In this document: piece after piece, positions 1-59,330 of the stretch | How positions within the stretch are numbered: position 1 is the first letter of the stretch | Layout: each line of letters begins with the position of its first letter | Origin: Panopea generosa | Taxonomy: Eukaryota > Mollusca > Bivalvia > Adapedonta > Hiatellidae | DNA: 64,000 bases | Assembly: GCA_029582155.1 (NCBI GenBank) | Contig: CM055903.1 | Span: 42,051,769-42,115,768 of the forward strand | Direction of reading: 5' to 3' | Program-made: the position numbers and the translations under genes | The notes under the pieces: generated by a model | What the model was told of the DNA's origin: nothing | Databases searched by the model: none | Seen by the model: only the letters and a program-made list of their open reading frames with translations

Positions 1-11020
<11,020 letters not shown>

Positions 11021-29170: not shown

Positions 29171-29202
<32 letters not shown>

Positions 29203-29930: not shown

Positions 29931-29939
29931 TACATGACA

Positions 29940-30920: not shown

Positions 30921-30929
30921 AGTGCATAT

Positions 30930-31186: not shown

Positions 31187-31221
<35 letters not shown>

Positions 31222-32450: not shown

Positions 32451-32454
32451 ACTT

Positions 32455-33290: not shown

Positions 33291-33293
33291 ATC

Positions 33294-37750: not shown

Positions 37751-37768
37751 CACGTGATCAAGATGGCG
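37751..37768 (+). promoter_or_regulatory. CACGTG E-box plus YY1-like site in LINE 5' UTR
   Basis: CACGTG (37,751-37,756) is followed by CAAGATGGCG (37,759-37,768), a YY1-type core, 310 bases upstream of the ORF1 ATG at 38,077. YY1 sites at the start of LINE 5' UTRs are known from mammalian L1. Function here is inferred from sequence only. Confidence 0.5.
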
Positions 37769-38076
37769 ATGTAGTGTTTATTTTTACGGAGCTCAGAGGT
37801 GAACAATTTTGGATTGAAAGTGACTTTAAAATGAAATTTTAGGGAAAGTCGGACAATATATGTGTATCAGAATATAAGTGTTATGTAGTGCTTTTGAAAT
37901 TCCTTGAAATGGACGGTTGAAACGTGAGTAATCCGTAATAGAAATTTTGAACAGTACGTTTTATCTACATTGAACTCTGTTTTGACCCCGGAATCGCCAG
38001 CGCAATTTTGAATACCTGTCACGCTCAATAATTTCGTAACTATACTGTTCGGCAAAGATCCGGTGCAAGTTTTGTC

Positions 38077-38575
38077 ATGTCGTTTGCTGATATTGTTGCA
38101 TCGACTCCCAACAAGTCTGACGAGACTACTAAAAAACGCGAACTGTCAGCTTCATCTCTGAACCAATCCTTGATTAATCCAGAGAAAAAGACCAAACAGT
38201 CCGACATTTCAGACATTTCAGACATTGCTGACAACGCTGAACCAGCTCTAGTCCATTTAGCAGACTCTGAATTCACGAGGATTGCAACAATGATGAAGGA
38301 AATGATAAACTCGCAAGTTGAGCCTCTCGTCAAGTCAATCATTTCAGATGTCACGCTCACTCTTCAACGGCGGATCGATTCGCTTGAAAAGGAAAAGGTT
38401 GACCTGGTCGAACAGGTAACACTCTTATCCAGCAAAGTTGACAGAGGTTGACCGCGACACTGCTGAACAATACAGTCGTCGCAACTGCATTCGTATTGTT
38501 GGTGTTAAAGAGTGCGAGTCAGAAAACACCGATGCCATCGTTATGGACATTGCGTCCCAGATCCAGTCCAACATA
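38077..38575 (+). pseudogene. LINE ORF1 remnant, frameshifted and 3'-truncated
   Basis: The frame MSFADIVASTPNKSDETTKK runs through a Ser/Asp-rich linker and a coiled coil (SLEKEKVDLVEQVTLLSSKV). A single-base shift near 38,445 then moves it to the frame with VDRDTAEQYSRRNCIRIVGV, the signature just before the RRM-like ORF1 domain. It breaks off after IVMDIASQIQSN, and a (TATG)n microsatellite follows. It could be the ORF1 of the element whose ORF2 starts at 39,552, but about 1 kb of unrelated sequence intervenes. Confidence 0.7.
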
Positions 38576-38639
38576 ATAATACTATTTAATGTTTCAATAA
38601 TGTATGTCATTTCATTTCATAAATTAATACATAAATATA

Positions 38640-38880
38640 TATACGTATATGTGTGTGTATGTATATGTATAAAATATGTACATGAGTATATGTATTTGTG
38701 TGTGTATGTGTATATATGTATATGCATATGTGTATGTATACGAATGTATATATATGTATGTATATGTATATATGTGTATGAGTACATGTGTGTTTATGTA
38801 TGTATGTATGTATGTATGTATGTATGTATGTATGTATGTATGTATGTATGTGTATGTGTATTTGTATGTGTGTATATGAA
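38640..38880. repeat. (TATG)n microsatellite
   Basis: TATG/TGTG tetramers with a pure run of about 18 TATG units around 38,795-38,848. Tyr-Val-Cys-Met frames on the plus strand and His-Thr-Tyr-Ile frames on the minus strand are artefacts. Confidence 0.93.
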
Positions 38881-39551
38881 TCAGTTATGTACAAGTAATG
38901 TGTTTATCAATAATATACGTCAATTATAACGAAGTAATGTTCGCCATTTGTCGTCGGTCCGTCCGTACAGTAAACCATGTGTTATTGCATATCATAATTA
39001 TTCAAGTTATTTTTGCGTCAACATATATAGTTGTCCGTCCATACAGTTAACTAGTTTCTGTCAATATTACGTAGTATAGTTGACAACTATGTAATGTCTG
39101 CTATATGTCGTCGTCAGTTCGTCAGCACAACAAACCACTTGTTTGAATGAACATTTAAAACACACCTTGTTCTGGTCGAAATTATCAAACCTCAATTAGC
39201 TCCAATATTCCATGAATTTTGAGTCACCATGATTATATTAATTGAATTCTTTTCGATATCTACTCTTGTTGAACCGTCCTACAGTTCAATCCACTTCAAC
39301 TGCTTGTTTTTATGCTTCCATTGTTTCTCTTTTATGAGGCGGCTCTACCATAGGTATACACTTTTCATATTGTTCAACCGATTGTCATTTCTCATAGTCT
39401 CTATTTTTGTGTTACCTCATAGGTAATGATGTAACTGCGTGGAGAATGGCAATCGGATTATAAAAAGTCAAGTTTTCAAACATACCTAATTGTTTACGAT
39501 TGTACTTATATTTTTGTTTGGACTAAAAAGGAATTAACATATTACAGTTAT

Positions 39552-42500
39552 ATGTTTTACTCCTTCATCCGTGATTGCACTTTAAACATAAATTTTGCTT
39601 CAGTCATTCTTTTACTAGTCTTGATGTCGGGCAACATTGCCGAAAATCCAGGACCGTGTGAAAACTTAAATGAAATACACAAAGGTCTTTCAATAGCTCA
39701 TTTAAATATTAGAAGCATTCGCACGAAACAAGATTACATCAAGGATTTTTTGCTTGATTTTGATATTCTATGCTTTACAGAGACCCACCTTACTGACGAC
39801 ATTACGAACGAATATCTTTTATTGGACGGTTTTTCGGCCTCTTTGCGACTGGACAAGACTGCATTCTCAAGTGGCCTGTTGACTTATGTTTCAAATAAAT
39901 TAGTTGGTAAACGTTTAACATGTTTAGACAATCCATCTATTGACTCAATTTGGACAGAGATTAAGTACAAAGGAACCACAGTAATATTATGTAATGTATA
40001 TCGACCCCCTAATTCAAATGTTTTATTCTGGGATAATTTTAATATTTCAATAGAAATGGCCCTTGATATTAACAATAATATCGTTATTGCCGGTGACTTA
40101 AACGATGACCTTTTAAACCCAAATTGTCAACACCTTAATAATATCATGTTTTTAAATAATCTACGCAATGTTATAACCGAACCTACCCGAATTACAAATA
40201 CAACGGCCACATTGATAGATCCAATTATTATATCTGATTCTGTTAAATCATTAAATGAAGGAACTATAAATGTACCTTCCGAAATAAGCGACCATAAATC
40301 TACTTTTATTATTTTTCCTTTTACTGTTATTTTAACTCCTGCAGTTAAACGTAAAGTATGGTTTTATAAACGTGGAGACTTTGATAAATTGAATAACAGA
40401 ATCTCAAATACTAATTGGGATTTTATTAATAATAATAATATAGATTATGCTTGTTCGCAGTTTACTGACTTAATTCTACAATACATGAACGAGTGTATTC
40501 CATCCAAAGATGTAACTATTCGACCAAATGATAAACCTTGGTACAATTCAGAAATAAGAACATATTCAAGAAAACGAGACAGACAAATGACAAAAGCTAT
40601 ACGGACGCAAAAAACAGAAGACTGGACAAAATACAGACATTTAAGAAATAAGGTTAATAATAATAATAATAATAATGCCAAGGAGCAATATTTTAGTAAT
40701 ATGGAAGAAATGATTGTAGACAGTAGTAAGACTAATCCTAAATTATATTGGAAATTACTTAAACAATTAATAAGAGCAAATAAAAATTGTGAAACTATTC
40801 CTCCATTAAAAACTACATTAGATAACGGCGAAGAAAAATACTATTTTGACGATATCGACAAAGCCAATAGTTTAAACGATATTTTTGTATCAATTTCATC
40901 AATAAGTCATGAGCAAAACAATACTTTACTACCAACTTGTTCTCTTAAAACAAACAATACTCTAACAAATATCAAGATAACTGAAAATGAAATTAAGGAT
41001 ATTATAGATACATTAAATCCCGACAAATCAGTTGGAGAAGATAAAATCAGTCATAAACTTTTAAAATTAACAAAAAACTGTATTTCTAAACCACTGGTTA
41101 TGCTTTATAATAAATCACTAGAAGAATGTAAATTTCCAGAGTTATGGAAACATGGTTTAATAATGCCACTATTCAAAAAAGGAAATACGAATAAATTGTC
41201 TAATTATAGGCCAATAACACTCTTTAGTTGTGTGGGTAAATTAATGGAAAGAGTTGTTTACAAACATATCTATAATTTATTTGTTGCAAATAACTTGATA
41301 TACAAGTTACAGTCAGGATTTTTAAAAGGTCACTCAACTGTTCATCAGTTAATCGACATCTACCATCAAGTTTGTCTGGGTATCGATGCAGGTCAATTTA
41401 CATGTATGGTTTTCTGCGACGTTTCCAAAGCATTTGATCGTGTGTGGATAAAAGTTTTTCTTTTTAAGCTAAAACAGAACGGTGTTAACGGTGATATCTT
41501 AAAATGGGCGGAAAGTTATTTAACCGGACGTCAACAAAAGGTCTTTGTAGGTTCAAGTTTGTCCGACAGTCAGGCAACATCTGCTGGAGTTCCTCAAGGT
41601 TCTGTCCTATGACCATTATTCTTTTTAATTTATATTAATGATATTGCCGAACATTTATTAAGTATTACTAGAATATTTGCTGATGATACATCTCTTGCAT
41701 TCACGGCATCTAATATAACAGATATTGAAGGCATTTTAAACCATGATCTAAGTATGATTTCAGATTGGTCAAAACAATGGTTGGTTAATTTTAACCCAAA
41801 CAAAACAGAAGCAATCTTATTTACTCTAAAAAAAATATCATATATCCTTCTTTGACTTTTAATAATACCAGTGTCAAGTTTGTAGATCATCATAAACATT
41901 TAGGACTCACATTAAGTAACGATGGGAAATGGCATGAACATATACAAAATATTTTACACTCTGCATCAAAGGTTTTAGGTAGGATCAGAAAAATCAAGTT
42001 TACAGTTAACAGAACAGCTTTTAATCAAATTTATATGTCATTTATTCGACCTATTCTAGAATATGGATCTGTAGTGTGGGGTGGGTGTACCCAATATGAA
42101 AAAGAAAATCTTGAAAAAATTCAACACGAAGCGGCTCGTATTGTATCCGGTTTAACTCGGTCTACTTCTCTTCGTAACTTATACAAAGAACTAGGTTGGC
42201 TTTCTTTAGAAGATAGAAGATTATGCCAAAAATTAATTGTTGCTTATAAAGTAAAAAAAGGGTTAACTCCAGAATATTTAAACAATATTTTTCCTGAAAC
42301 TGTAGGAATAACTACACCATATAATCTAAGAAATAATAGTATTTATTCTTTATTAAATACAAGAACCCAATTATTTAGAAATTCTTTTATTCCATCATGT
42401 ATTTCTTTTTGGAATAATCTTCCGGAACACTTACGCAATTCTGAAACTCTACCATCATTTAAACGCCAGCTTATGAATCATTTGTTTAAACCCACCAAAA

Positions 42501-42847
42501 TACCATGTTTTTATTTAACAGGTTCTCGCAAATTACCTATTTTTCATGCACGTTTAAGAAATTGTTGCAGTAACCTTAATTATGATTTATTTGTCAACAA
42601 ACTAAAATTATATTCAACTTGTGAAAAATGTGAGCATGAAAAAGAGGATGCCGAACACTATTTCATGCAATGTCCTCCTTTTTTAAGCGATCGACTTCGT
42701 CTCTTTCATGCTACACGTCACCTTCATCCTTTAAGTGTTAAAACCCTGTTACACGGGAGAGATGATATTTCAGACGATGAAAATATTGCTGTATTTAACA
42801 ATGTACAGACTTATATTAAAGACACTAAACGTTTTGATAAAGAATAG
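39552..42847 (+). pseudogene. CR1/L2-like LINE ORF2 (APE endonuclease and reverse transcriptase), nearly intact
   Basis: A 686-codon frame is followed by a 331-codon frame. The N-terminus is hydrophobic (FASVILLLVLMSG) and carries a 2A-like NIAENPGP. Endonuclease blocks: LNIRSIRTK, CFTETHL, NVYRPPNS, IAGDLNDD, ISDHKSTF. RT blocks: NYRPITLFSCVGKLMERV, GFLKGHSTV, FCDVSKAFDRVW (catalytic Asp), GVPQGSVL and then FADDTSL. Post-RT: HLGLTLSNDGKW, RPILEYGSVVWGG, and the knuckle CEKCEHEKEDAEHYFMQC. Only two defects are visible: a TGA at 41,610-41,612 where the family has Gly in the GSVLGPLFF block, and a +1 shift in the A8 run at 41,828-41,835. CR1/L2 membership is inferred from the endonuclease and C-terminal pattern. 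Confidence 0.88.
39630..39656 (+). other. 2A-like translational recoding motif at N-terminus of LINE ORF2
   Basis: Residues 27-35 read GNIAENPGP, immediately after a hydrophobic stretch and before the endonuclease. The consensus is D-(V/I)-E-x-N-P-G-P. Here the Asp is Asn and the Glu is Ala, but x-N-P-G-P and the preceding leucine-rich run are kept. 2A-like sequences at this position are documented in APE-type non-LTR retrotransposons of invertebrates. Confidence 0.6.
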
Positions 42848-43110
42848 ATCTTATTAATTTTAGTATTTACCTCACAATGGAGCCTCTCATTTAAGGTCAG
42901 CATCGGAAGCATATATTTTAACAATGTATCCTATTTCATTTTTTCTTCTTACTTCGTATATGAATATGTTTTACTGCTATCTTGATTGTTTTTTGTAAAT
43001 AATTTGTTGTTGGGAAGGGCCGATTTTAACGTTGGATAACTTTTGGACCAACCCTTTTGCTACTACATGTATATAAAAAGGCAATAAAATTTAAAGTAAA
43101 GTATAACTTA
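42848..43110 (+). other. LINE 3' UTR with AATAAA
   Basis: Non-coding after the ORF2 stop, with AATAAA at 43,083-43,088 followed by AAAGTAAAG. The likely 3' end is just before the (AT)n tract. Confidence 0.6.
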
Positions 43111-43122
43111 TTTGATATCAAT

Positions 43123-43126
<4 letters not shown>

Positions 43127-43191
<65 letters not shown>
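43127..43191. repeat. (AT)n microsatellite
   Basis: About 65 bases of pure AT dinucleotide directly after the LINE 3' end. Confidence 0.97.
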
Positions 43192-43194
<3 letters not shown>

Positions 43195-43349
43195 AAGGGG
43201 AGTTAACATCCTCACTAAAAAACTTGGAAAGTTTGCCCTTAATTTTACAAATGTGAAAATGTTGAATTCTGCATATATTATATTATAATGTGTTTCTTTA
43301 CATCTGGTATTGTTAAACTGTTACAATGAAATAAAAAATTACAAAAAAA

Positions 43350-43430
43350 AATGTCTTGCTCAAGGACACCACACGTAGTCGTGATGACGGATCAAATCTG
43401 CGACCCCCCACCACCCACAACCCCCACCCC
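43350..43430 (-). mobile_element. SINE S2 fragment
   Basis: On the minus strand a B-box-like GATTTGATCC is followed by GTGGTGTCCTTGAGCAAGAC, the S2 centre. Only about 80 bases remain, just outside the left palindrome arm. Confidence 0.5.
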
Positions 43431-43571
43431 CATGAGCGAACAGATCTCGATGTATTGACGTACGTCAGCGGTTGACATATCACATTAACAACTTAGTTAT
43501 GACAATTAACATAACCTTTATTTCGTTTTCATGACAACTGTGGCGTATCAATCAATATCCAACTGGTATGC

Positions 43572-43607
43572 TATATAAAGGTTTGCAGGGACTTTCTTTG
43601 GTCAGTA
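43572..43607 (+). promoter_or_regulatory. TATA box and initiator of left PH-domain gene
   Basis: TATATAAAG at 43,572-43,580 and an initiator-like TCAGTA at 43,602-43,607, about 30 bases apart as expected for a TATA-dependent RNA polymerase II start. The same pair is conserved in the right arm. The predicted 5' UTR is about 195 bases. Confidence 0.65.
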
Positions 43608-43800
43608 ACTTGTTATACCGCACATCGTATGTAGTCGGGAATCATTGACAGTTGCGTGTAATAGGTACGTGACATAGACATTATTATTGATATCATCGTA
43701 AGAAAAAATAACGTTTTCAGTTGTTTGAAGGATCTGTGTAAGAAATAAACATCTAGTGGAGATCACTTACAAATAAGCGTGAGTTTATAAAGAAACAAAA

Positions 43801-44250
43801 ATGCAAAATATGAGTTTGCCCGATTCTAAAATAATATCCCGTCGACGGGAGAGGTCGGGTTGTGATATAGAAATCAAAACAGGAATCATCTTCGTGCTGG
43901 TTTCGAATGGGCAGAAGCAGATTCGAGCTAAGGTATACATGAAAGTGCTAGGGAATAGCTACGAGCATCACGCCCAGATGTACACAGACTCTAATCATAC
44001 TGTTATGTATGGCACCGTTAGTTTGAGGAACTGCAACGTATCCATCATTGGAAAACATTCACAGACGATTGTTATTTCATCAAATACAAAAAATTGGGAC
44101 GCAGTGTTTTCGGGGGGACATTTGCAGTTTGAGGCTCAATCGAAAGCCGATGCTGAAGACTGGCTCAGGGCATTGACGCCGCGGTATGTTTTACCGCTTA
44201 AAACGTGTTTATCGCCACAAATACCCGCGAGGTTCAAATGTAAGAAATAG
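43801..44250 (+). CDS. Small PH-domain-like protein, left-arm copy (149 aa, intronless)
   Basis: Start ATG at 43,801 after AAACAAAA. A basic N-terminus (SRRRER) is followed by beta-strand blocks TGIIFVLVSN, QIRAKVYMKVLG and TVMYGTVSLRNCNVSIIG, then TIVISS, HLQFEAQSKADAEDWLRAL. The last block, a helix with the invariant Trp, is the classic end of a pleckstrin-homology domain, so residues about 20-127 form a PH fold. That would imply lipid or protein binding, but I cannot name a ligand and no other domain is present. It is one uninterrupted exon and ends KCKK with TAG. The right-arm copy has about 22 amino-acid differences by eye. Most nucleotide differences between them are replacements, so constraint is uncertain. 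I do not recognise the specific gene. Confidence 0.7.
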   Translation: MQNMSLPDSKIISRRRERSGCDIEIKTGIIFVLVSNGQKQIRAKVYMKVLGNSYEHHAQMYTDSNHTVMYGTVSLRNCNVSIIGKHSQTIVISSNTKNWDAVFSGGHLQFEAQSKADAEDWLRALTPRYVLPLKTCLSPQIPARFKCKK

Positions 44251-44281
44251 ATTCATGATATACTGAATACGTCATTTAGCA

Positions 44282-44500
44282 TCAATTTCCACTGTGTGGA
44301 GCAAAAGAACAATAAAACAAAACAACACTATGCTTTGGTGTTGATGTCAATTCTGTGCGAGGGCAGATATAATATCGATACAATGAACGAGTTTCATGGC
44401 GTTGAAGAAAGGTACTCGTCGGTGTCTTCCATGGAATAGGACAAATGACGATTTTCTGTAACTTATGTTTGAACAAACCCATCAAAATTATGAGATGCAT
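44282..44500 (-). other. Antisense open frame in PH-gene 3' UTR, conserved in both arms
   Basis: A minus-strand frame with ICPIPWKTPTSTFLQRHETR and SLYRYYICPRTELT. The right arm keeps an equivalent frame at 56,103-56,306. No family is recognised. Preservation may simply reflect about 90 percent nucleotide identity. Confidence 0.25.
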
Positions 44501-44661
44501 ACGTTTAATGCATGTTGGGAGTTAACTCACCTCCATATTGTATTACATAATTTGTTTGAAACGTCTGTAAAATACTGTTTTACTGTCTTAAGTTGTGTGT
44601 CATATTTCTATTTATTTAATGCTATTTCACTGTTTCTTAATCAAACATTGTAAATTTAGCA

Positions 44662-44667
44662 AATAAA
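44662..44667 (+). terminator. AATAAA poly(A) signal candidate for left PH gene
   Basis: AATAAA lies 412 bases after the stop. The corresponding right-arm bases read AATAAG (about 55,922-55,927, minus strand), a weaker signal. Confidence 0.45.
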
Positions 44668-45654
44668 AAGATAAATACCATTACAAGATCATTTATACAT
44701 ATTGTTACTTTGTTCTTCCAAACAAGAGCCAGATTTGTTATCGTACTGGTTCAGGTATTTGTACAATGATTGTCATATTAGCCCAAGGTCCAATAACTGA
44801 AGGCTACTAACTGGAGCAATGCGTTATCCCACCATAAATAACATTTTTTATCAATTATCAACCGGAAGTTATCGTATTTACCCAGTTCCGGTTCACACTG
44901 GACTTGTTGTGTTTTGTATTGACTCAATTCGTTAACATGGAACGAAACAATATAACTGAAATTAAAACATGGATATTCTATTTGCCAGAAATATGTATGC
45001 AGATTATCAAGCTGAGATTATAAAACAATGTAATATATTTGAATAAATATACACTTTGTCATCCTTTGGCATTACATGAAACCAAAGGCGGTGTGACTTG
45101 TTTTCACACCTCTATTTTTTAATGAAAGAAGTTTGTTTATTTTGTAAAGTAAACACTTCAGGGGTTTATATAGAATATAGAACGACCCAAGAACAGGTTC
45201 CGGATAAATAGAGGAGCAATCGACGCCCGTCTTTTAAATGTGACAAGAAGAGTTAAATTGGCTTAAAGTCAAACACTATGACCGGCCACATGTATACATA
45301 TTAGACCCCTGATAGTGTCTATGTACTCTGCTAATCACGACATCCCTGCACACACAAATACTCGCGTGCACGCACACACACATTGAAGCGTATGCTTCCC
45401 TAACCATTATATCATGAATGCGCCACAGATGCAAACACTACGATTGCTACATAAGTGTAGAAGCTCGAGGACAACTCATTGAAGACCGCGAATGGCGTCC
45501 ATTTTAATGAAAGAAATTAGTAAATATTTTACACCGACAATCTTAAAGGGTTATAGAAAAGAAAACATATCTCTGGGTGAACGAACGCTTTGTGTTTTTA
45601 TTTAAACGTATTTATTTTATCTCGATTGCAAATCATGCTCGATGTCTTTCTTGG

Positions 45655-45800
45655 TAAATCCAGTATAAAGCATATGCAGATAAAGTGTCTTGCTCAAGGA
45701 CATAACACATAGCTGCAGTAGTGAATGGAACGGACGCGCTCCGAGATTTGTTAACGGCAGATGGACACTGCGATTCTTTTGTGTTTGCATATTTTTTTAG
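45655..45800 (-). mobile_element. SINE S2 fragment present only in left palindrome arm
   Basis: The minus strand carries GTCCTTGAGCAAGACACTTT and TCTGCATATGCTTTATACTG. In the right arm the homologous position (about 54,935-54,970) lacks this block and reads straight from GGTAACTTAC to CCCTTATGGCACTGG. Confidence 0.65.
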
Positions 45801-46369
45801 TTCTGTCTTGTAACCACGGAACCCTTATGGCACTGGTAACAGTAGGCGCAGTTCACTTTAAATAAAAAAGGTTAAAATTTAAAAAAAAAACAACAAAACA
45901 TTGCACTAATAACATCCATATTTTAACAATATTTTATCTAAACGGTTCATCAAAATAATGAATTTGAAGTCTAAAATATCAAAATTTACCATTCCTCAAC
46001 TACACGTTATGATGTTGAAAAGTCTTAGAGGCATATGAACGTCCAAAGTCCAAGGTAGATAGAGTATTAGTCATTCCCGCCTAAACAATGTTCCGTTAGG
46101 ATGGAATTGGTTCCAATCGTCTGCCTCTAATAGCAGTCACTAGTTTGGTAATATCATGAAATTATCCAGAGGAAATGTCTAAATTCGCAATTTAACGATT
46201 TAATTAGATAAACAGGGAAAAAGATAAAGGAACTATTCACTGCTACCTGCTTTCTTTATTTTCTCTAAGCACAGGGAGCTGTCAATTCTGATCGCCCTTT
46301 GTCAGTCTATATCTGTATCTGAATAATAGTAAGTAGATTCCAGTACTGGTATATAACTACAGTCGTCCG

Positions 46370-46712
46370 TCCATCGTTTTCCATCAGAATGTTTTTGTGT
46401 GCACTCTACCACTAACAGTTTTCATTGGATATTCATCAAATGCACTGATAGTGTGTGCACTGTATCATCAGAATTTTTATTTGATCTTCAACAAACTTAT
46501 ACTTTGTCTCAAAAAGGTTCAAGAACTGGCAAAATTGGATGATTAATTGTGTGAATCGAAACATCCAGTTATTGACATCGGTGTATTCCCGCACTTGCTT
46601 TTTCATTTGATCCTCACCAAACTTACAGAGTAATTATATAACCATAATATGTCGATTCAGTTATTTATCTGGTAAAATAAGATAATTGATGACCTTTGAA
46701 TTATCAAAATAC
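46370..46712. repeat. Diverged ~190-bp tandem repeat, left arm part 1
   Basis: Repeating order TTTGATC.TCA.CAAACTTA, CA.AGTAATTATATAACCATA, a TGGCAAAATTGGAT-type block and a GCACT.TA block. It continues at 48,340-49,560 after the inserted element, and is mirrored at 53,050-54,280. Confidence 0.65.
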
Positions 46713-46724
46713 ACTATTTGACTC

Positions 46725-48319
46725 AGTTACGTGAAAGTGGCTATGAGATCGTCTATCGTAGATCAACATTCAATGCAGATCCAGGTCTGAGATCGTAGAT
46801 CAACATTCAAAAATAAAGTCAAAATTTGAATAACAACCCAGGTCTGCAATCGTAGATCAACATTAAATGCAGATCCAGGTCTGAGATCGTAGATCAACAT
46901 TCAAAAATAAAGTCAAAATTTGAAAAACGACCCAGGTCTGCAATCGTAGATCGACATTTAAACGACCTGGGTCTGTATTCAAGTTTTGTCCGTCTTATAA
47001 CTTTTATTTTGAATGTTGATCTACGATCTCATGTTGATCTACGATCTCAGACCTGAGTCTGCATTCAAGTTAAGTCCGTCTTTTAATTTTTATTTTGAAG
47101 GTTGATCTATGATTGCAGATCTGAGTCGTTATTCAAATTCAGACTTTTAATTTGAATTGTGATCTACGATCTCAGACCTGGGTCTGCATTCAAGTTTAGT
47201 CCGTCTTTTAACTTTTATTTTGAATGTCGATCCACGATTGCAGACCTGGGTCTTTTTTTCAAATTTTGACTTTATCTTTGAATGTTGATATACGATCTCA
47301 GACCTGGATCCGCATTGAATGTTGATCTACGATTGCAGATCATGATCGTTATTCAAATTCCGACTTTTATTTTGAATGTTGATCTACGATCTCAGACCTG
47401 GGTCTGCATTCAAGTTAAGTCCGTCTTTTAACATTTATTTTGAATGTCGATCTACGATTGCAGACCTTGGTCGTTATTCAAATTCCGACTTTTATTTTGA
47501 ATGTTGATCCACAGCTCTCAGGCCTGGGTTTGTATTCAAGTTTTGTCTGTCTTTTAACTTTTATTTTGAATGTTGATCTACGATCTTACACCTGAATCTG
47601 CATTCAAGTTTTGTCCGTCTTTTCACTTTTATTTTGAATGTTGATCTACGATCTCAGACCTGGGTCTGCATTCAAGTTAAGTCCGTCTTTTTACTTTTAT
47701 TTTGAATGTCGATCTACGATCACAGACCTGGGTCGCTTTTAAATTCCGACTTTTATTTTGAATGTTGATCTACGATCTCAGACCGGGGTCTACATTCAAG
47801 TTTTGTTCGTCTTTTAACTTTTATTTTGAATGTTGATCTACGATCTCAGACCTGGGTCTGTATTCAAGTTTTTCCGTCTTTAAAAGTTTATTTTGAATGT
47901 TGATCTACGATCTTAGACCTGAGTCTGCATTCAAGTGAAGTCCGTCTTTTAACATTTATTTTGAATGTCGATATACGATTGCAGACCTGGGTCGTTATTC
48001 AAATTCCGATTTTTATTTTGAATGTTGATCTACGATTTCAGACCTGAGTCTGCATTCAAGTTTAGTCCGTATTTTAATTTTTATATTGAACATCGATCGA
48101 CGATTGCAGACCTGGGTCGTTATTCAAATTTTGACTTTATCTTTGAATGTTGATCTACGATCTCAGACATGGATCAGCATTTAATGTTGATCTACGATTG
48201 CAGATCTGGGTCGTTTTTCAAATTCCAACTTTTATTTTGAATGTTGATCTACTATCTCAGACCTGGATCTGCATTGAATGTTGATCTACGATTGCCAATC
48301 GCATAGCCAACTTCACGCA
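46725..48319. mobile_element. 1.6-kb fold-back element with satellite interior; empty site in right arm
   Basis: The ends form imperfect TIRs (CGTGAAAGTGGCTATGAGAT against CGTGAAGTTGGCTATGCGAT on the other strand). ACTATTTGACTC is duplicated at 46,713-46,724 and 48,320-48,331. The right arm has the single uninterrupted sequence CACTATTTGACTCTGTGTAC (minus strand, near 53,845-53,864). The interior is tandem units containing GTTGATCTACGATCTCAGAC and a CTGGGTCTGCATTCAAG block, in one orientation at 46,750-46,960 and the opposite from about 46,960 to 48,300. There is no ORF. It is a non-autonomous DNA element. Confidence 0.85.
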
Positions 48320-48339
48320 ACTATTTGACTCTGTGTACT

Positions 48340-49560
48340 CACTAACGCATGTATTTTTATTCAAATTAATCCATACTTACAAAGTTCCATAAAATCCTTT
48401 CTCGAAGAAAATCTTAAACTGGTCAAATCGGGTAATGTCCATGATCCATAAAATCATCAAAATACATGTTATTTGGTGTTATGTGCACTCCAGCAGTCGC
48501 AATTTCATTTTTGGTAAGCTCAAAACATACAGAGTAGTTACATAATCTATTTCGAACGAGTTCTCGACTGGCCAAATCGGGATGAAATTGTCAGAATTAT
48601 TGCTAGTGAACCATCAATAATTGCATAATTAAACTTTGAGTGTACTTTAGGACACACATTTTAATTGATCCTGATCAAACTGACAGTACAGTTTTATTAT
48701 TATAATTATAATTATATATTATTCATTTGAGGTGGTGCTAACACTGACAGTTTTCATTCAATATTTTCCAAATTTACACAGTAATTATATAACAATCACA
48801 TCTTGAACAGCTTGTTGGACTTGTCCATTCGAAAGTTCATCTCAGGGTTATTATCCTTCAGTCATCACAAAATGTGTTTTTTGATGTTGTGTGCACTTTA
48901 GCATCTTCAGTTTTCACTGGATCCTTGCTAAACTTACTCAGTAGTTACCATAATAATTTAGATTAATTGTTGAACTGACTAAATCGGATAGTTAATGTTG
49001 GAGTTACGATCCTCAAAACTTTCATTATGTGATGTTATGTGCACTACAGCGCGCAATTTTCATTTGATCTTCCTCAAATTTACTAACAAAGTAGTTATTT
49101 CAACCAAATTATCTTAGATAAAATTTTGAATTGGCCAAATCGGATAATTACTGGCAGAGTTATGGCCCCCAAATCGTCAGAAAGGCGCTTTATATAATGA
49201 GTGTAGTTTTGCAGTTTTTCATTGATTTTTTTTTCAAACTTACACAGTAGTTATGTATAACCATAATATCTTGCACAAGTTTTAGATCTGTCCAAATAGG
49301 ATAATTACGGACAATAATTTGATATTTTATGCACTCTAGCACTCTCAAATTAACTTGATCTTTATCAAACTTACACAGCAGTCATATAATCAAATATATT
49401 GAACACGTTCTTGATCTGTCGAAATCTGATTTTTCTGTTACTTATGGCTCTTTTAAGAGTCAACAAAGTTGTGTTTTTTGCACTCTTACATCCTCAATTT
49501 CCCTCAGTTCTTCAGCAAATTTACACAAAAGCTATATTTCTTTAACATCAGATAACCAAC
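48340..49560. repeat. Diverged ~190-bp tandem repeat, left arm part 2
   Basis: Further units of the pattern seen at 46,370: TTGATCTT..CAAACTTACACAG, TATATAACCA, CTGGCCAAATCGGATAATTA, GAGTTATGGC and GTTATGTGCACT. Units are heavily diverged. Confidence 0.7.
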
Positions 49561-50644
49561 TTTAAATCTCTGAGGAATGGCCATCGCTGTATCTAAAATT
49601 ACTGTCTATTGGCATTGTCTCTCTGCCACAGTTGCGCGATATAGGACCAACGTGGCCATCTAGTTTCAACGTGTTCCTGTTCAATCTTCCTGACGTTATA
49701 TTGCATAAGCATCAATATTTTTAACTCGTTTTAAAATTCTAAGTTTAAAATGACCAGGTTTTCGAAGCCCCAATATCTGTCCTGTAAAATGCATTTTTTT
49801 AAAAAAACTTTTTTTTTCAGCAAAACGTAATGTATTTGTATTAAATATACATTATTATTTGATATCATATGTATATTTTACTTTAAAGTTTTTTTTCTCT
49901 ATTCATAACATAATTTCCAAAGATAATTAATTAAAGAAAATGCTAATGTCCCCACAATGTTGTCCAAGTTTACGCATTTAAATAGTACTTAAGCCACACA
50001 TAGATATTTAACCTGATCACTGTCTAGTACACTCTGAGCAATATGTGTAAGTATTTTCTTGTGGTAAGAGTACCTTCATTGTTAAAAGCAAGCAAGATCT
50101 ATTTACATAAAATGACATATTGTATATCTCTGTGCGTGTACATTTAAATGGTATTATTTTAAGCGAAAAATATAAAATTGAAAAAGAAAGTGTATAGTGC
50201 CATTTTCGTGAACTTTGTCCTTTACACCGTCTCTAAGCTAATAGTATTTATAGTAACCGAGTGTAGCATTTGCAGTTTATGTGCAGGGATGAACACATTT
50301 TGTAAACAATAATTTGATATTCACTTGTTTGAAATTCACAATAACACAGTTGAAAAATTAAATAAAGCAATATTCCTGGCGGATATTACTCTCTATATAT
50401 AGACTCAATCAATATTAAAATTGTCTTTGTATAAGCGTATTCTAAATAATAGCTTCTACTTATGTTTATAAATATATTTCTAATTTGATCATGCTTGTTA
50501 CCGTGGTAATGTTAATGTATTTTAGTCACAGCGTACTTGTTTCAAACTCCTTTGTCAGGTTTTAGATGGCAATGTATTGTATATTATAATCTAGATTTAT
50601 TATACAGATCTATTTATATATTTAATAATTAATTATTTTCTCCC

Positions 50645-50654
<10 letters not shown>

Positions 50655-50701
<47 letters not shown>

Positions 50702-50930
50702 TGTGTGTTTATAAAATCAACTACGAGAATCACAATGGATCTATATATATACATGTGTATGTTTATAAAATCAACTACGAGAATCACAATGGATCTATAT
50801 ATACATGTGTATGTACAAAAAAACAACTACAAGAATCACAATTGATCTATATATACATGTGTATGTACAAAAAAAACAACTACGAGAATCACAATGGACA
50901 ATCTTTTATAGCTTTTACTTTTAGATGACT
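50655..50930. repeat. (GT)n and 55-bp tandem units at inner end of left arm
   Basis: About 40 bases of GT, then four units of AAATCAACTACGAGAATCAC, AATGGATCTATATATACATG and TGTATGT. Mirrored at 51,910-52,130. Confidence 0.85.
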
Positions 50931-50985
50931 TAAATAATGTGTTATTTTTACGCACAAAAATAGTACTTAAGAAACACCTAACTTA

Positions 50986-51824
50986 GTCATATATGGTCAG
51001 CTACCACCATTGAGACGAGCTCTCTGATTGGCTGAAAAAAGTATAGGGATGTTCAGGGCATATGTTTTTATGGTAAGCTTAATTCTGGTTGAATGAAAAT
51101 ATTAAACTGGCAAATGATCACAATAAAATATACGTTTATTATGTTTGTGTCAATAAAAAATTAGAATTATGTTTCTGTGACTGTCTAAATTCATTTTATC
51201 AAGGAAACTGCATGGAAAGTAAAATTTGTGAAATTTACTTTTTTTCGTGCTGAAAGTGGGGGTACCCAACTCCAGGGGGCAAAAAGTAGTAAAAAGTGGT
51301 ACTTTTGACCCAATTTTGGGGACATTTTAATTTGAGTCTAGGACAGTACTTTAATATGATATACGACTTTTTGGTCCGCGGATGATAGAAATAGTGAAAA
51401 TTAGGTCAAACGCTATAATGTAAGTCTATGGAAAACGTAATGCTGGTAGCTGATCATATAATGGTTGACTTTCCCTTTCCTAGTCAATTTCATTGTACGC
51501 TTTGTATAGCAAAGAACATATTTCACAGTCAGTACGCGTGTCGTCATCGCCATATTAACGCTAGTAATTCGTAAACAATTAATAGCGTAGTACTTTCCGA
51601 ACTATTTTACATTCGGCACATGAAACTCCCACATGACACATGATTGGTACATTATTTGGTTACCCCCAAATAAATTGTCTTTATCTTTATTTAATGAAAA
51701 TAATGCACATTTTGTTTGTGTTTGTGCATTGACTAATGAGGCATTTACAATTTTACAGACGTCAACATCCCGTAGGGAAATATGAGCTGTATGAAAGTAG
51801 TAAATTTCTTTTTGTTCATTATAT
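50986..51824. other. Spacer of the large palindrome
   Basis: About 840 bases without inverted partner. It has no open frame above 60 codons and no motif I recognise. It keeps the two arms from forming a perfect hairpin. Confidence 0.75.
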
Positions 51825-51909
51825 ATGACTAAGTTAGGTGTTTCCTAAGAACTATTTTTGTGCGAAAAATAACACATTATATAAGTTATCTATCAGTGAA
51901 GGCTATAAA

Positions 51910-52130
51910 GGCTTGTCCATTGTGATTTTCGTAGTTGTTTTTATAAAGATACACATGTATATATATATCCATTGTGATTCTCGTAATTGATGTTATAAAA
52001 TACAAATGTATATATATATCCATTGTGATTCTCGTAATTGATGTTATAAAATACAAATGTATATATAGATCCATTTTGATTCTCGTAGTTGATTTTATGA
52101 ACATACACATGTATGTATAGATCTGTATTA
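51910..52130. repeat. 55-bp tandem units at inner end of right arm
   Basis: Four units with CCATTGTGATTCTCGTA.TTG and ATTTATAAA/ATGTTATAAA blocks, mirroring 50,700-50,900. The (GT)n tract is absent here. Confidence 0.8.
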
Positions 52131-53049
52131 TAAATCCAGATCATAATGTTCAATACATTGCCATCTAAAACCAGACAAAGGTGTTTGAAACAAACACGCT
52201 GTGACTAAAATACATTGACATTACAACATCAAGTAGACATCTGGAATTACCATGGTAACAAGCATGATCAAAATAAAGATATGTTTATAAACATCAATAT
52301 AAGCTATTATTTAGAATACGCTAATACAAAGATAATTTTAATATTGATTGAGTCTCTATAAAGAGAGTAATATCCGCCAGGAATATTGCTTTATTTAATT
52401 TTTCAACTGTGTTATTGGGAATTTCAAACAAGTGAATATCAAATTATTGTTTACAAAATGTGTTCATCCCTGCACATAAACTGCAAATGCTACACTCGGT
52501 TACTATAAATACTATTAGCTTAGAGACGGTGTAAAGGACAAAGTTCACGAAAATGGCACTATACATTTTGTTTTTTAATTTTATATTTTTTCGCTTAATA
52601 CAATACCATTTACATGTACACGCACAGAAAAAATTCAATATGTCATTTTATGTAAATATGTCTTGCTTGCTTTTAACAATGAAAGTACTGTTACCACAAG
52701 AAAATATTTACACATATTGCTCAGAGTGTACTAGACAGTGATCAGGTTGTGTGGCTAAAGTACTATTTAAATGCGTAAACTAGGACAATATTGTGGGGAC
52801 ATTAGCCTTTTCTTTAATTAATTATCTTTGGAAAGTATGTTATGAATAGAAAAAAAATCTTTAAAATAAAATATACATATAATATCAAATAATAAAGTAT
52901 ATTTAATACAAATACATCATGTTTTGCTGAAAAAATAAGTTTTTAAAAGAAATGCATTTTCCAGGACAGATATTGGGGGTTTGAAAACCTGGTCCTTCTA
53001 CACTTAGAATTTTAAAACGAGTCAACAATATTGATGCCATTCTTAAGAG

Positions 53050-54280
53050 ATTTAAAGCTGAGATATTAAAGAAATATAATATTTGTGTAAGTTTGGTGAA
53101 GAACACATGAAAATTAAGGATGCAAGAGTGCATATGAATACCAAATAACACAATTTTTTTATTCTTAAATGTGCCATAAATAAAAGAAAAATCAGATTTC
53201 GACAGTTCAAGAACGTGTTCAATATATTTGACTATATGACTGCCGTGTAAGTTTGGTGAATATCAACTGAAAACTAAGAGTGCTAGAATGCATAAAATAT
53301 CAAATCATTTTTCGGTAATTATCCTATTTGGACAGTTCTAAAATTTGTCCAAGATACTATGGTTATACATAACTACTGTGTAAGTTTGAAAAAAATGGAG
53401 AATATTAAATGAAAAATGTCAGTGTTAGCACCACCTCAAATGTATAATATATAATTATAATTATAATAATATAACTACACTGTAAGTTTGATCAGGATCA
53501 ATTACAAATGTGGGTACTAAAGCACACTCAAAGTTAAATTATGCAATTATTGATGGTTCACTGGCAATAATTCTGACAATTTTATCCCAAGTTAACCAGC
53601 CGAGAACTCGCTCAAAAGAGGTTGTTATGTAACTACTCTGTATGTTTTGAGCGGACCAAAAAAGAAATTGCGACTACTGTGGTGCACATATCATTAAATA
53701 ACATGTATATGATGATTTAAGGGTCATAGACCCGACATTACCCGATTTGGACAGTTTAAGATTTTTTCGAGAAAGGATTTTATAGAACAACTGTGTAAGT
53801 TTGGAGAAGTTCAAATAAAAATGCAGAAATGTGTTAGAGTGTACACAGAGTCAAATAGTGTATTTTGACAATTCAAAGGTCAGAACTCCGACATTTGTAC
53901 CAGAATAACTAAATCGTTATATTACGGTTATATAATTACTCTGTAAGTTTGGTGAGGATCAAATGAAAAATGCAAGTGCTAGAATGCACCGATGTCAAAT
54001 ACTGGATTTTTTATGTTTCGATGCACATAATTAATCATCCAATTTTGCCAGTTCATGAACCTTTTTGAGGGTATAAGTTTGTTGAAGATCAAATAAAATT
54101 TCTGATGATACAGTGCACATAATAGCAGTGCATTTTCTGACGATTCAAGGGTTATAACTGATGTTTATTCGATTTTGCTAGTTCAAGAGCCAGAGATATT
54201 AGGATTATATAACTACTATGAGCATATGGTGAATATCCAATGATAACTGTGAGTGGTAAACGTTCTGACGATGGACGGAC
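53050..54280. repeat. Diverged ~190-bp tandem repeat, right arm
   Basis: Inverted counterpart of 46,370-49,560, with TGTGTAAGTTTG.TGAA.ATCA recurring about every 190 bases. It retains the empty site of the 1.6-kb fold-back element near 53,845-53,864. Confidence 0.7.
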
Positions 54281-55007
54281 GACTGTAGTTATATACCAGT
54301 ACTGGAATCTACTTACTATTATACAGATACAGATATAGACTGACAAAGGGCGATCAGAATTGACAGCTCCCTGTCCTTAGGGAAAATAAAGAAAGCAGGT
54401 AGCAGTGAATAGTTCCTTTATCTTTTTTTCTCTGTTTATTTAATTAAATCTTTAAATTGCGAGTATAGACATTTCCTCTGGATAATTTCATAATATTACC
54501 AAACTAGTGACTGCTATTAGAGGCAGACGATTGGAACCAATCCCATTCTTATGGATCATTGTTTTGGCGGAAATGAATAATAATCAATCAACCTTGGACT
54601 TCAGAGGTTCATATGCCTCCAAGACTTTTCAACATCGTAACGTGTAGTTGAGGTATGGAAAATTTTGATATTTAAGACTTAAAATGCATAATTTCATTGA
54701 ACCGATAAAATAGTGTTGTTTTTATTCTTTAAGAGTAAACAAAAATAAACGGGGGAAACACACAAAAAAATGAGTGTCCTCCAGCTATTTTTTTTATATG
54801 AGAAATATTGCATTCCAATGAAATTCAAGTTAAAATATAGTTGTTATTAGAGCAATCTTTTGGGATTTTTTTTACTGATAAACGTTTTTTTTTTATTTAA
54901 AGAGAACTGCATCTACTGGCACCAGTGCCATAAGGGGCTCATTTTATAAAGTAAGTTACCAGACCTCGAGCATCATTTGTTTCACAATCGAGATAAAATA
55001 AGTACGT

Positions 55008-55199
55008 TTAAATAAAAACACAAAGCGTTCGTTCACCCAGAAATATGTTTTCTTTACTATTACCCTTTAAGATTGTCGGTGTAAAATATTTATTAATTTC
55101 TTTCATTAAAATGGACGCCGTTCCCTGTCTTGGACGAGTTGTCCTCGAGCTTTTACACTTATGTAGCAATCGTAGTGTTTGCATCTGTGACGCATTCAT
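55008..55199 (-). other. 63-codon open frame conserved but broken in the other arm
   Basis: Minus-strand frame MNASQMQTLRLLHKCKSSRT, continuing to an ILMKEINKYFTPTILKGN block. The left-arm equivalent (45,415-45,606 plus) has nearly the same residues but an in-frame stop after about 27 codons. No family is recognised and it is probably not a gene. Confidence 0.25.
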
Positions 55200-56102
55200 G
55201 ATATAATGGTTAGGGAAGCGTACGCTTCAATGTGTGTATGCGCACGCGCGTATTTGTGTGAGCGGGGTGGTCGTGATTAGCAGAGTACATAGACACTATC
55301 AGGGGTCTAATATGTATACATGTGGCCGGTCATAGTGTATTAAACCAATTTAACTCTTCTTGTCACCTTTAAAAGACGGGCGTCGATTGCTCCTCTGTTT
55401 ATCCGGAACATGTTCTTGAGACGTTCTATATTCTATATAGACACCTGAGTTGCTTACTTTACAAAATAAGCAAACTTGTTGTAGTAAAAATAGAGGTGTG
55501 AAAACAAGTCACACCGCCTTTGGTTTCATGTAATGCCAAAGGATGACAAAGTGTATATTTATTCAAATATATAACATTGTTTTATAATCTCAGCTTAAAA
55601 CTCTGCATACATCTTTCTGGCAAATAGAGTATCCGTGTTGTAATTTCAGTGTTATCGTCTAATGTTAACGAATTGAGTCAATAAAAAACACAAGTCAAAT
55701 GTGAACCGAAACTGGGTAAATACGATAACTTCCGGTTGTTAATTGATAAAATTGTTATTTGTGGAGGGATTACGTATTGTGCCAGTTATTAGTCCTCAGT
55801 TATTGGACCTTGGTCCAATATGACAATCATTGAACTATTAACTAAACCAGTATGATAACAGGTATGGCTCAAAGAACAAAGTAACAATATATATAAATGA
55901 TCTTGTAATGGTATTTAACATCTTATTTGCTAAATTTACAATGTTTGATTAAGAAACAGTGAAATAGTATTAACAAAATAGAAATATGACACACAACTTA
56001 AGACAGTAAAACAGTATTTTACAGACGTTTCAAACAATTATGTAATACAATATGGAACTGAGTTAACTCCCAGCAAGCACTTAACGCATACATCTCATAA
56101 TT

Positions 56103-56306
56103 TTGATCGGTTTGTTCCTATATAAGTTACAGAACATCGTCATTTGTCCTATTCCCTGGAAGACACCGACGAGTACCTTTCTTCAACGCCATGAACCTCG
56201 TTCATTGTATCGATATTATATCTGCCCTCGCACAGAATTGACGCCATCTCCAAGGCATAGTGGGGTCTTTTTTGTTTGTTCTTTTGCTCTTAACAGTGAA
56301 AATTGA
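56103..56306 (+). other. Antisense open frame, right-arm counterpart
   Basis: Keeps ICPIPWKTPTSTFLQRHEPR and the SLYRYYICPRTELT block seen at 44,282-44,500. It is antisense to the PH-gene 3' UTR. Coding status is doubtful. Confidence 0.25.
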
Positions 56307-56337
56307 TGATAAATGACGTATTTAGTATATCATGAAT

Positions 56338-56784
56338 CTATTTCTTACATGACCTCGTAAGTAGTTGTGGCGATAAATACGTTTTAAGTGGTAAAACATA
56401 CCGCGGCGTCAATGCCCTGACCCAGTCTTCAGCATCGGCTTTCGATTTAGCCTCAAACTGCAAATGTCCCCCTGGAAACACCGTACCACACTTCGTTGTA
56501 TTTGATGAAATGACAATCGTCTGTGAATGTTTTCCAATGATGGATACGTTGCAGTTTCTCAAACTAACGGTGCCATACATAACAGTTTGATTGGAGTCTG
56601 TGTACATCTGGGCGTGATGCTCGTAGCTATTCCCTAGCACCTTCATGTATACCTTTGTTCGAACCTGCTTCTGTTCATTCGAAACCAGCACGAAGATAAT
56701 TCCTGTTTTGATTTTTATATCACTTCCCCACCTCTCCCGTCGACGGGATATTATTTTAGAATCGGGCAAACTCAAACTTTGCAT
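56338..56784 (-). CDS. Small PH-domain-like protein, right-arm copy (148 aa, intronless)
   Basis: The ATG is at 56,784 on the minus strand. The architecture matches the left copy: SRRRER basic start, TGIIFVLVSN, KVYMKVLGNSYEHHAQMYTD, TVSLRNCNVSIIGKHSQTIV, and the closing helix FEAKSKADAEDWVRAL with the PH-type Trp. It differs by about 22 residues, clustered near positions 19-24, 37-43, 97-104 and 135-144, plus one in-frame codon loss near the C-terminus. No stop or frameshift separates the copies. Both copies point toward the palindrome centre. Confidence 0.7.
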   Translation of the reverse strand: MQSLSLPDSKIISRRRERWGSDIKIKTGIIFVLVSNEQKQVRTKVYMKVLGNSYEHHAQMYTDSNQTVMYGTVSLRNCNVSIIGKHSQTIVISSNTTKCGTVFPGGHLQFEAKSKADAEDWVRALTPRYVLPLKTYLSPQLLTRSCKK

Positions 56785-56983
56785 TTCTGTTTCTTTACAA
56801 TGTCACGCCTATTTGTAAGTGATCACCACTAGATGTTTATTTCCGACGCAGATCCTATCAAACAACTGAAAACGTTATTTTTTTCTTACGTTGATATCAA
56901 TAATAATGTCTATGTCACGTACCTAAACTATAACACGCAACTGTCAATGCTTCCCGACTACATACGATGTGCGGTATACCAAG

Positions 56984-57020
56984 TTACTGACCAAAGAAAG
57001 TCCCCACAAACCTTTATATA
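56984..57020 (-). promoter_or_regulatory. TATA box and initiator of right PH-domain gene
   Basis: On the minus strand TATATAAAG (57,012-57,020) precedes TCAGTAA (56,984-56,990) with the same spacing as in the left arm. The surrounding ACATCGTATGTAGTCGGGAA block is identical in both promoters. Confidence 0.65.
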
Positions 57021-57112
57021 GACCACTTTAATACGCCAATATAGTTGTAACTAAGTTGTTAATTTGATATGCCAACGGCTGACGCATGTCAGTAAATACA
57101 TACGATATCACT

Positions 57113-57939
57113 TCGCTCTACCCAATGCAAGCGTAATTTGTCCTATTTTGTAAGAATTTGTTTCAAAAAGATGTAAAATAAATAAGCTAACAAGAGACGT
57201 GGAACATCCCCGAAAACAATGTTATTCAAACATTTTAGCTATTCTGTAACTATAACTCTATTTCATGCCAGAATTTTATATACCTTGAAGCAGAAATTAA
57301 AAAAGCATACGATTCAATTTTTTTTTTTATTTGTAAAACATTGATGCAATAGTTTTGTTAATAAAACATGAAATAAAGTTTTTCTCTTGTTTCTGTGCTT
57401 TTCACTGGATGTTTGGCTAAAATATTACTTCCGTGATTTACATTATGAAAGATGTAATATGATTATACTCGGAAACAAACATGCATATTCATAAAATAAT
57501 ACATCAATATTTTCACATTTTGCATTGAGGCTTAAGTGATGGTATTATTTCCAGTGCTTACCGATAGGAGGTAAGTCACACATGCTTAACTGATAGCAAC
57601 AGTTTCTTAAACACGATATTTGATTCTACAAATATATTACAAAATGCATCAAACTATATGAGAAATTCAGCTGTGTTGTAAAAAAGGGCCATAACTCTGA
57701 AGATAATAGTCCGTATTGGCTGGTTATCGAACTTGGTCTAGATTTTATAGAGATGCACACTTTATGTACATTTGCTTCAGTTCTGATACAGAATAATTTT
57801 ATCATCTTTGTGTAAGTTTTGGTTCAGTTCCGATGAAAAATACTCTAGTTGGAAACGAAAAACTTGACGCTGCCCATCCGCCCACCTATCCGCCCACTCG
57901 CCAATCTTATAACCAGGTTTTCAACTTTGAAAAAAAACT
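57113..57939. other. Non-coding stretch with dispersed-repeat look
   Basis: Contains GGGCCATAACTCTGAAGATA and a CCCATCCGCCCACC block, patterns seen in molluscan dispersed repeats. No gene is visible. Confidence 0.4.
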
Positions 57940-59330
57940 GTTAAAAAAAACAAATCAACTTAGTACTTTTAAACAACGATGACCGTAGCTTAGCATTTCT
58001 TGAAATAAATCAAAGTACTTAATGTACTAAAAACCTGGGAAAGCAATGGTGAAGTAGATATAAAATAATAAAATTTCTGTCAGATGTAGCCCAGAACATA
58101 TGTATGCATTTTGATGGAAAGTGATTTAGTACAGGTTACAATTTACAAGCCGTTGTTTGATGCATGGTTACAACAAAGTTCATAAGACAGAATTACATTG
58201 TATTTATTTATAAAATAATAGGTCACTGTTCAGTTTCTAAGATGTTAGATATTTTATATATATTTCAAAGCAACTTCAATCTCAAAGTAAAATGTTATAT
58301 TTCGAATACAGTTCAATATATAAGGTGATCTACATAAATATACATATAAAAATCAATACTTAAGTTTACATAACTGTGTATATTAGGCTAGAAAAAACGC
58401 ATATATCAAAGCAACAAAATAATATTGGCGAACATTCAAAAGTTACCGGCTCATGATCGAAGTCGTGAAACTTTGTAAGTATATAATAATGACATAGGTG
58501 ATGCTCCAAATCAAGCTTCTGAATATGAGTTTGACAATGAATCAAGTATTATTTCCAAAGCAGTCCAAATTCAAGTATACACAAACTGGAGTATGTGTCA
58601 TTACGAACAGGTAAAATAAAGGATGTCAAATTTTTACAGCAGGTATCTGGTTTGGTTGCTACTTCTACACTAAGAGATGAAAACGCAACATATTTACCAC
58701 GATTGTATATATCCATATTATGAAGTATTTAGTGTATATTGATGTTATTAATTGTTTACTTGAGAAGCTACTGAATAAGTTAATGCCTTCTGTATAAGTG
58801 TCAGTTTTTTACATTTCCAAGTAAGTCCCTCCTAAACCATGTGTTGCATTTTCATATCTTCCTGTGTTGCGTTTTCATATTACTTAAGTGTATGTAGAAT
58901 ATGGGTAACACATTTGAAGAGCAATCAGAGGTTGAACTGATACTTGACACAAACTACACTGTATGTAAAAGTATTGTTAACGCGATGAGAAAGATTGAAT
59001 CACAAGAGAAACTTCTTACAGAACATATCTAGCAGATTGAATTGCCTCTATTAAGCAGACAGCTCAATAGAGATGCCTCTACGGAGACAAAAATTATGTT
59101 TTGTCTGGAAAATAAACGTATTCGAATTTTGAAAAGATGTACGTCTAATACCAAGTACGGGAGTTAACATTGAAAAGTTCTTTGCTGAAGAAAACACCAG
59201 CTTTTCACCACCCCACTTCCGACTTTGTTGAAATCTTACTTCGTTACCCTGAACGTATCACCTCAGCAGATATTGAACAACACGACAAGGAAGCATAGGT
59301 TGCTGATGGTGCCTGATTTGTCATTATTTC
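57940..59330 (+). repeat. Long dispersed repeat R1, copy 2 (inverted partner at 25,530-26,920)
   Basis: Matches copy 1 over about 1.4 kb. A frame from the ATG at 58,901 reads MGNTFEEQSEVELILDTNYT, then VCKSIVNAMRKIESQEKLLT and EHI before a TAG shared with copy 1, and resumes with LLSRQLNRDASTETKIMFCL. Coding remnants continue to about 59,740 (EETDTRLSLHTFDATIL, resembling an EEADTRI.LH motif common in uncharacterised mollusc and cnidarian proteins). It is dead, and the family is unknown. Confidence 0.65.

What the first reader, a model, noticed from the sequence alone, without database searches (positions are those of the whole stretch)
43446..57112. 13.7-kb imperfect palindrome carrying two convergent PH-domain genes
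Two long arms (about 7.5 and 5.3 kb) align in inverted orientation nearly end to end around an 840-bp spacer, each with an intact intronless PH-domain-like gene and promoter. Gene-bearing palindromes of this size are unusual and can be maintained by arm-to-arm gene conversion. The alternative is an assembly join of two diverged haplotypes in opposite orientation, a real risk in highly heterozygous invertebrates.
Basis: seen in the sequence. Interest (0 to 1): 0.75.

Follow-up and report, generated by a model that had tools for sequence, protein, structure and literature searches.

The report
Old inverted duplication of small gene
A stretch of a probable clam genome was copied in mirror-image long ago, giving two facing copies of a small gene whose surroundings have since drifted apart and filled with mobile DNA, which looks like an ordinary event rather than a specially maintained palindrome.

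Summary
The palindrome is real and is best read as an old inverted segmental duplication. Arms at about 43434-50994 and 51821-57118 align at 91.0% over 4,688 sites in seven well-aligned blocks. Each arm carries an intact, inward-facing ORF of 148-149 codons with weak PH-domain similarity, below Pfam's cut-off. The window's own assembly is held (1.47 Gb, 39 contigs; the window lies in a 70.8-Mb contig). The gene's DNA has exactly two matches in it, one per arm. A second inverted block pair outside the finding (25528-26910 / 57946-59329) is full-length only twice among the candidates scored. I therefore extend the duplication to about 25.5-59.3 kb, its left half split by 16.5 kb that includes LINE sequence. 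In 40 kb on either side only short dispersed repeats match in mirror orientation. Most of the arms are not being homogenised (9% divergence, one-arm insertions). A 204-bp stretch with a single difference suggests an old conversion tract or a constrained element. Both ORFs show mild signs of constraint (dN/dS 0.44 or 0.62 by method; no frameshift where 3.7 are expected). A false join of haplotypes is unlikely but needs reads to exclude. Interest is low.

The parts
43434..50994 (+). left arm of the inverted duplication
   Evidence: aligns to the reverse complement of 51821-57118, 91.0% over 4,688 sites in seven chosen blocks
51821..57118 (-). right arm of the inverted duplication
50995..51820 (.). 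spacer: a ~470-bp element with short terminal inverted repeats (about 50991-51459) followed by ~360 bp; neither part matches elsewhere in the window
43801..44250 (+). intact ORF, 149 aa, weak PH-domain similarity
56338..56784 (-). intact ORF, 148 aa, weak PH-domain similarity
43572..43579 (+). TATA-like motif upstream of the left ORF, conserved in the right arm
   Evidence: sequence read, edge alignment
57013..57020 (-). TATA-like motif upstream of the right ORF
   Evidence: sequence read, edge alignment
46725..48322 (.). left-arm-only insertion: ~237-bp terminal inverted repeats, internal tandem array, 9-bp target-site duplication (46716-46724 / 48323-48331); the empty site is in the right arm
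48771..49227 (.). left-arm-only stretch of diverged repeats
45634..45821 (.). left-arm-only stretch, part of it similar to dispersed repeats at 18761, 9831 and 43348
50191..50394 (+). nearly identical tract (1 mismatch in ~204 bp) paired with 52362-52565
25528..26910 (+). probable outer block of the same duplication (left copy)
57946..59329 (-). probable outer block of the same duplication (right copy)
26911..43433 (.). sequence separating the left arm from its outer block; it contains LINE reading frames (reverse transcriptase at 34.9-35.2 kb; endonuclease and reverse transcriptase at 39.4-41.6 kb)

Best explanation
This is an old inverted segmental duplication in a probable bivalve genome. 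A segment of at least ~5 kb was copied in opposite orientation beside itself, leaving ~360 bp of DNA without a partner between the copies. The segment holds one small gene with its promoter and probably, further out, a 1.4-kb block. The copies then diverged to ~9% by substitution. Transposable elements landed in single places: a foldback-type element in the left arm, a small terminal-inverted-repeat element in the spacer, and LINEs between the left arm and its outer block. Both gene copies stayed open, under at most mild constraint. Shown: anatomy, copy number for the pieces that could be searched, one insertion with its empty site, open frames. Inferred: origin by fold-back or template-switch repair, order of events, expression of the genes, membership of the outer block, and an old local conversion event at the near-identical tract.
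For: Arms 91.0% over 4,688 sites. The gene DNA has 2 matches in the 1.47-Gb assembly, both here, and both first-look candidates were scored. The outer block has 2 full-length matches, both here and in mirror order (40 of 1,638 candidates scored). The inner arm piece 49712-50613 has 2 full-length matches, both here (40 of 703 candidates scored). In 40 kb on either side there is no N and no mirror homology other than short dispersed repeats. Left-arm insert with exact 9-bp target-site duplication and the empty site in the right arm. No frameshift in the ORFs against 3.7 expected (P 0.025); both frames stop-free in 16% of neutral simulations; dN/dS 0.44 by NG86. The ORF is the longest frame found open in both arms, scanning left-arm frames of 40 codons or more.
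Against: No reads, depth or second individual were examined. Constraint on the ORFs is weak: dN/dS is 0.62 by YN00, and 22 amino-acid differences in the 145 compared positions lie within the neutral simulation's 95% range of 20-39. The outer block is separated by 16.5 kb on the left but 0.8 kb on the right, and those stretches do not match each other, so its membership is inferred. Its ungapped identity, 93.0% of 1,369 sites, is a little above the arms' 91.0%. Parts of it match dispersed repeats elsewhere in the genome. Genome copy number was not obtained for 44251-45633, the spacer or the right gap.
Confidence: 0.85

Rival explanations
1. Assembly artefact: two diverged haplotypes of one locus were joined in opposite orientation.
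For: Small insertions and one-arm transposons are what diverged haplotypes also show. Erroneous scaffolding is stated to be able to create artificial palindromes (PMC7953838, passages).
Against: No N in the window or in 80 kb of flank. The locus lies inside a 70.8-Mb contig. Mirror homology other than short dispersed repeats stops on both sides. 9% divergence would be very high for alleles (general knowledge, not looked up). The spacer has no partner in the window, unlike a direct fold-back. The gene DNA has no third match on any contig.
Confidence: 0.1
2. A palindrome actively kept alike by arm-to-arm gene conversion, as on mammalian sex chromosomes.
For: Mismatch density along the arms is uneven (dispersion 2.45; 0 of 2,000 shuffles reach it). 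There is a 204-bp tract with one mismatch and a 147-bp identical run not reached in 2,000 shuffles. Unevenness remains in noncoding sites without that tract (1.77; 1 of 2,000 shuffles).
Against: Overall identity is only 91%. Arm-specific insertions persist. The tract's G+C (0.324) is not raised over the arms (0.339 and 0.330). Uneven constraint or mutation explains the same pattern.
Confidence: 0.04
3. The whole palindrome is one giant foldback transposon whose long inverted ends carry a captured gene.
For: Long inverted arms with internal tandem arrays.
Against: Only two matches of the gene-bearing arm DNA in 1.47 Gb. No target-site duplication seen by eye at the outer edges, where similarity tapers off. 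The largest array lies inside the one-arm insertion at 46725-48322; the others are short arrays, mostly near the spacer.
Confidence: 0.01

Closest known systems
Inverted segmental duplications / convergent inverted gene duplicates
   Same: Two copies of one gene in opposite orientation with flanking DNA, a short unpaired spacer, ordinary divergence and later transposon insertions
   Different: Nothing of substance seen; the gene itself had no relative at E <= 1 in the protein collection searched
Mammalian X- and Y-chromosome palindromes
   Same: Gene-bearing inverted arms around a spacer
   Different: Those hold arm identity above 99% through conversion (PMC8981503 and PMC3723533, start of abstract in the listing); here 91% with one-arm insertions
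Genomic palindromes reported in Adineta vaga and Folsomia candida
   Same: Homologous copies in reverse order on one scaffold
   Different: Those were counted by collinearity of annotated genes, with the warning that misassemblies may be among them (PMC7953838, passages); here one gene per arm inside an N-free stretch

Membership tests
Inverted segmental duplication | Same sequence twice in opposite orientation well beyond one gene | tested here: met
Inverted segmental duplication | Sequence low-copy, not a dispersed mobile element | tested here: met
   gene DNA 2 matches of 2 candidates; outer block and inner arm piece 2 full-length matches each among the 40 candidates scored of 1,638 and of 703; both also hold old dispersed repeats over part of their length
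Inverted segmental duplication | Both copies physically linked in the organism's DNA | not testable with these tools
   no reads available; N-free assembly only
Conversion-maintained palindrome | Arm-to-arm identity near 99% or more | tested here: not met
   91.0% over 4,688 sites
Conversion-maintained palindrome | Locally homogenised tracts | tested here: inconclusive
   one 204-bp tract with 1 mismatch; constraint not excluded
Foldback transposon | Multiple copies in the genome | tested here: not met
   2 matches only of the gene-bearing arm DNA
PH-domain protein | Pfam PH match above curated cut-off | tested here: not met
   19.6 and 21.0 bits against a cut-off of 25.1
PH-domain protein | PH fold | tested here: inconclusive
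   model from 2 sequences has mean pLDDT 31.7 and is not usable

The most novel reading that the evidence does not exclude
An inverted gene pair of about 34 kb in a bivalve in which short-range arm-to-arm conversion has homogenised patches (a 204-bp tract) while the rest diverged, with both copies of an otherwise unknown small PH-like gene kept in use.
Probability: 0.2. Interest if true: 0.35.

Novelty: new member of a known kind. Interest (0 to 1): 0.18.

Why it matters
It is a clear example of how an inverted gene pair ages when conversion does not keep it alike, and a caution that such palindromes in transposon-rich genomes can extend past the visible arms. The small PH-like gene, with no relative found in the protein collection searched, is a minor lead.

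Tried and rejected
Homologues of the PH-like ORF: none at E <= 1 in the protein collection (14 candidates) and none in viral contigs (115 pattern matches, none confirmed). By sequence, the PDB gave one short marginal match (E 0.0013 over 36 residues). Structure prediction from two sequences was unusable, so no fold search was made. Rfam (gathering thresholds) and tRNA scans of the window were empty.

Reading the outer block as a dispersed transposon was considered and set aside: of 86 matches in the genome only 2 are full-length, 38 are partial at 70-84% identity and 46 are short at 78-93%, over query positions of about 45-452 and 721-956 (40 of 1,638 candidates scored). Mirror homology beyond the outer blocks was sought in 40 kb each side: of 27 inverted matches at E <= 1e-10, 19 of 150 columns or more were printed; 9 of those belong to the arms and the outer block, and 10 are short matches (about 150-360 columns, 75-88%). 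One of these 10 (59839-60028 with 5774-5962) does lie in mirror order, but its family also has direct copies at about 15.9 and 24.0 kb, so I count it as a dispersed repeat.

Papers: listing of 6; passages of two read; no paper with all four terms; one paper listed, not used; 12 of 44 listed; 10 of 124 listed, not used. PMC5916493 passages report palindromes in the 2013 A. vaga assembly and none in A. ricciae, and discuss scaffolding errors.

A paralogue search of the own genome with the PH protein was sent 14 times and never answered, so diverged relatives of the gene elsewhere in this genome remain unsearched. Genome copy number of 44251-45633, of the spacer and of the right gap 57119-57945 likewise did not complete.

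Full report
Observation. A self-comparison of the window shows two arms, 43434-50994 and 51821-57118, in inverted orientation around an ~826-bp spacer. In seven blocks that I chose as well aligned, 420 of 4,688 aligned sites differ (91.0% identity). Stretches between those blocks, present in one arm only or poorly aligned, were left out of the count. Each arm has one intact reading frame, 43801-44250 on the + strand (149 aa) and 56338-56784 on the - strand (148 aa), pointing to the centre. They are 85% identical and match Pfam PH weakly, below the curated cut-off. A TATA-like motif upstream is conserved in both arms.

It is probably larger than reported. A second inverted pair, 25528-26910 and 57946-59329, follows in the same mirror order outside the arms, with 93.0% identity over 1,369 ungapped sites. 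The right copy lies 0.8 kb from its arm and the left copy 16.5 kb from its arm. The 16.5 kb contains LINE reading frames with reverse transcriptase and endonuclease domains. In a search of the window's own assembly, of 86 matches only these two cover the block's full length; 38 others are partial at 70-84% identity and 46 are short at 78-93% (40 of 1,638 candidates were scored). I read it as the outer part of the same duplication. Membership is inferred from order, orientation and copy number, since the two intervening stretches do not match each other.

Copy number and context. The window lies in a 1.47-Gb assembly of 39 contigs, on a contig of 70.8 Mb. The gene-bearing stretch 43571-44250 has exactly two matches in it, the two arms; both first-look candidates were scored. 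The inner arm piece 49712-50613 has two full-length matches, again the arms, and 39 partial ones at 68-78% that mark an old dispersed repeat within it (40 of 703 candidates were scored). In 40 kb on each side there is no N, and no further mirror homology apart from 10 short matches that I take for dispersed repeats. Thiodiazotropha lives in lucinid clams and such bins may carry host DNA (recalled), so a bivalve is likely but not proven.

Later events. The left arm alone has a 1,598-bp insert (46725-48322) with ~237-bp terminal inverted repeats, an internal tandem array and an exact 9-bp target-site duplication; the right arm has the empty site. A target-site duplication of 9 bp recalls the MULE group (recalled, not tested). 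The left arm also has ~190 bp partly resembling dispersed repeats (45634-45821) and ~450 bp of diverged repeats (48771-49227). The spacer begins with a ~470-bp element with short inverted ends.

Are the genes maintained? In 4,241 noncoding sites there are 41 indels, 35 of them not multiples of three. The same rate predicts 3.7 frameshifts in the coding frame, and there is none (P 0.025); the one indel there is of 3 bases. In a neutral simulation both frames stay stop-free in 16% of runs. dN/dS is 0.44 by NG86 and 0.62 by YN00 (ratios of the values). The count of amino-acid differences, 22 in 145 compared positions, is within the neutral range of 20-39. This is mild evidence at best that both copies were kept. 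No expression data were available.

Is conversion at work? Mismatches are unevenly spread (dispersion 2.45, 0 of 2,000 shuffles), and 50191-50394 pairs with 52362-52565 with one difference, including a 147-bp identical run not reached in 2,000 shuffles. Noncoding unevenness remains without that tract (1.77, 1 of 2,000). G+C there is not raised. An old conversion tract and a constrained element are both possible. Mammalian sex-chromosome palindromes keep arms above 99% (start of the abstracts of PMC8981503 and PMC3723533); these arms do not behave so.

Is it an assembly error? Work on parthenogens warns that erroneous scaffolding can create palindromes (PMC7953838, passages). The passages seen of PMC5916493 report palindromes in the 2013 Adineta vaga assembly, none in A. 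ricciae, and discuss scaffolding errors. Here the stretch has no N, homology ends on both sides, the spacer has no match elsewhere in the window, and the gene DNA has no third match in the assembly. I put a false haplotype join at about 10%. Reads would decide.

Verdict. An ordinary, old inverted duplication with one small gene per arm, probably larger than first described, decorated by later transposons, possibly with one old conversion patch.

Noticed in passing
window 44311-44316 and 56240-56300: The left gene has an AATAAA shortly after its stop codon; the matching place in the right arm lacks it, read by eye, so the copies may end their transcripts differently
   Followed up: no
window 4893-5600: 28-bp tandem array, 25 copies, 93% matches
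   Followed up: no
window 6103-6537: ORF with an NXPE4_C match (E 2e-07), probably an exon of an NXPE-like gene
   Followed up: no
window 39435-41612: LINE frame with endonuclease and reverse transcriptase domains; the best named relatives are listed under Candidatus Thiodiazotropha genome bins, perhaps host DNA in symbiont bins
   Followed up: partly
window 31847-32444: 156-bp tandem array, 3.8 copies, 92% matches
   Followed up: no
window 60393-60615 and 62269-62491: 223-bp direct repeat at 100% identity, so presumably much younger than the palindrome
   Followed up: no
window 61282-61653 (-): ORF with a weak B-box zinc-finger match (E 0.00029, below cut-off)
   Followed up: no
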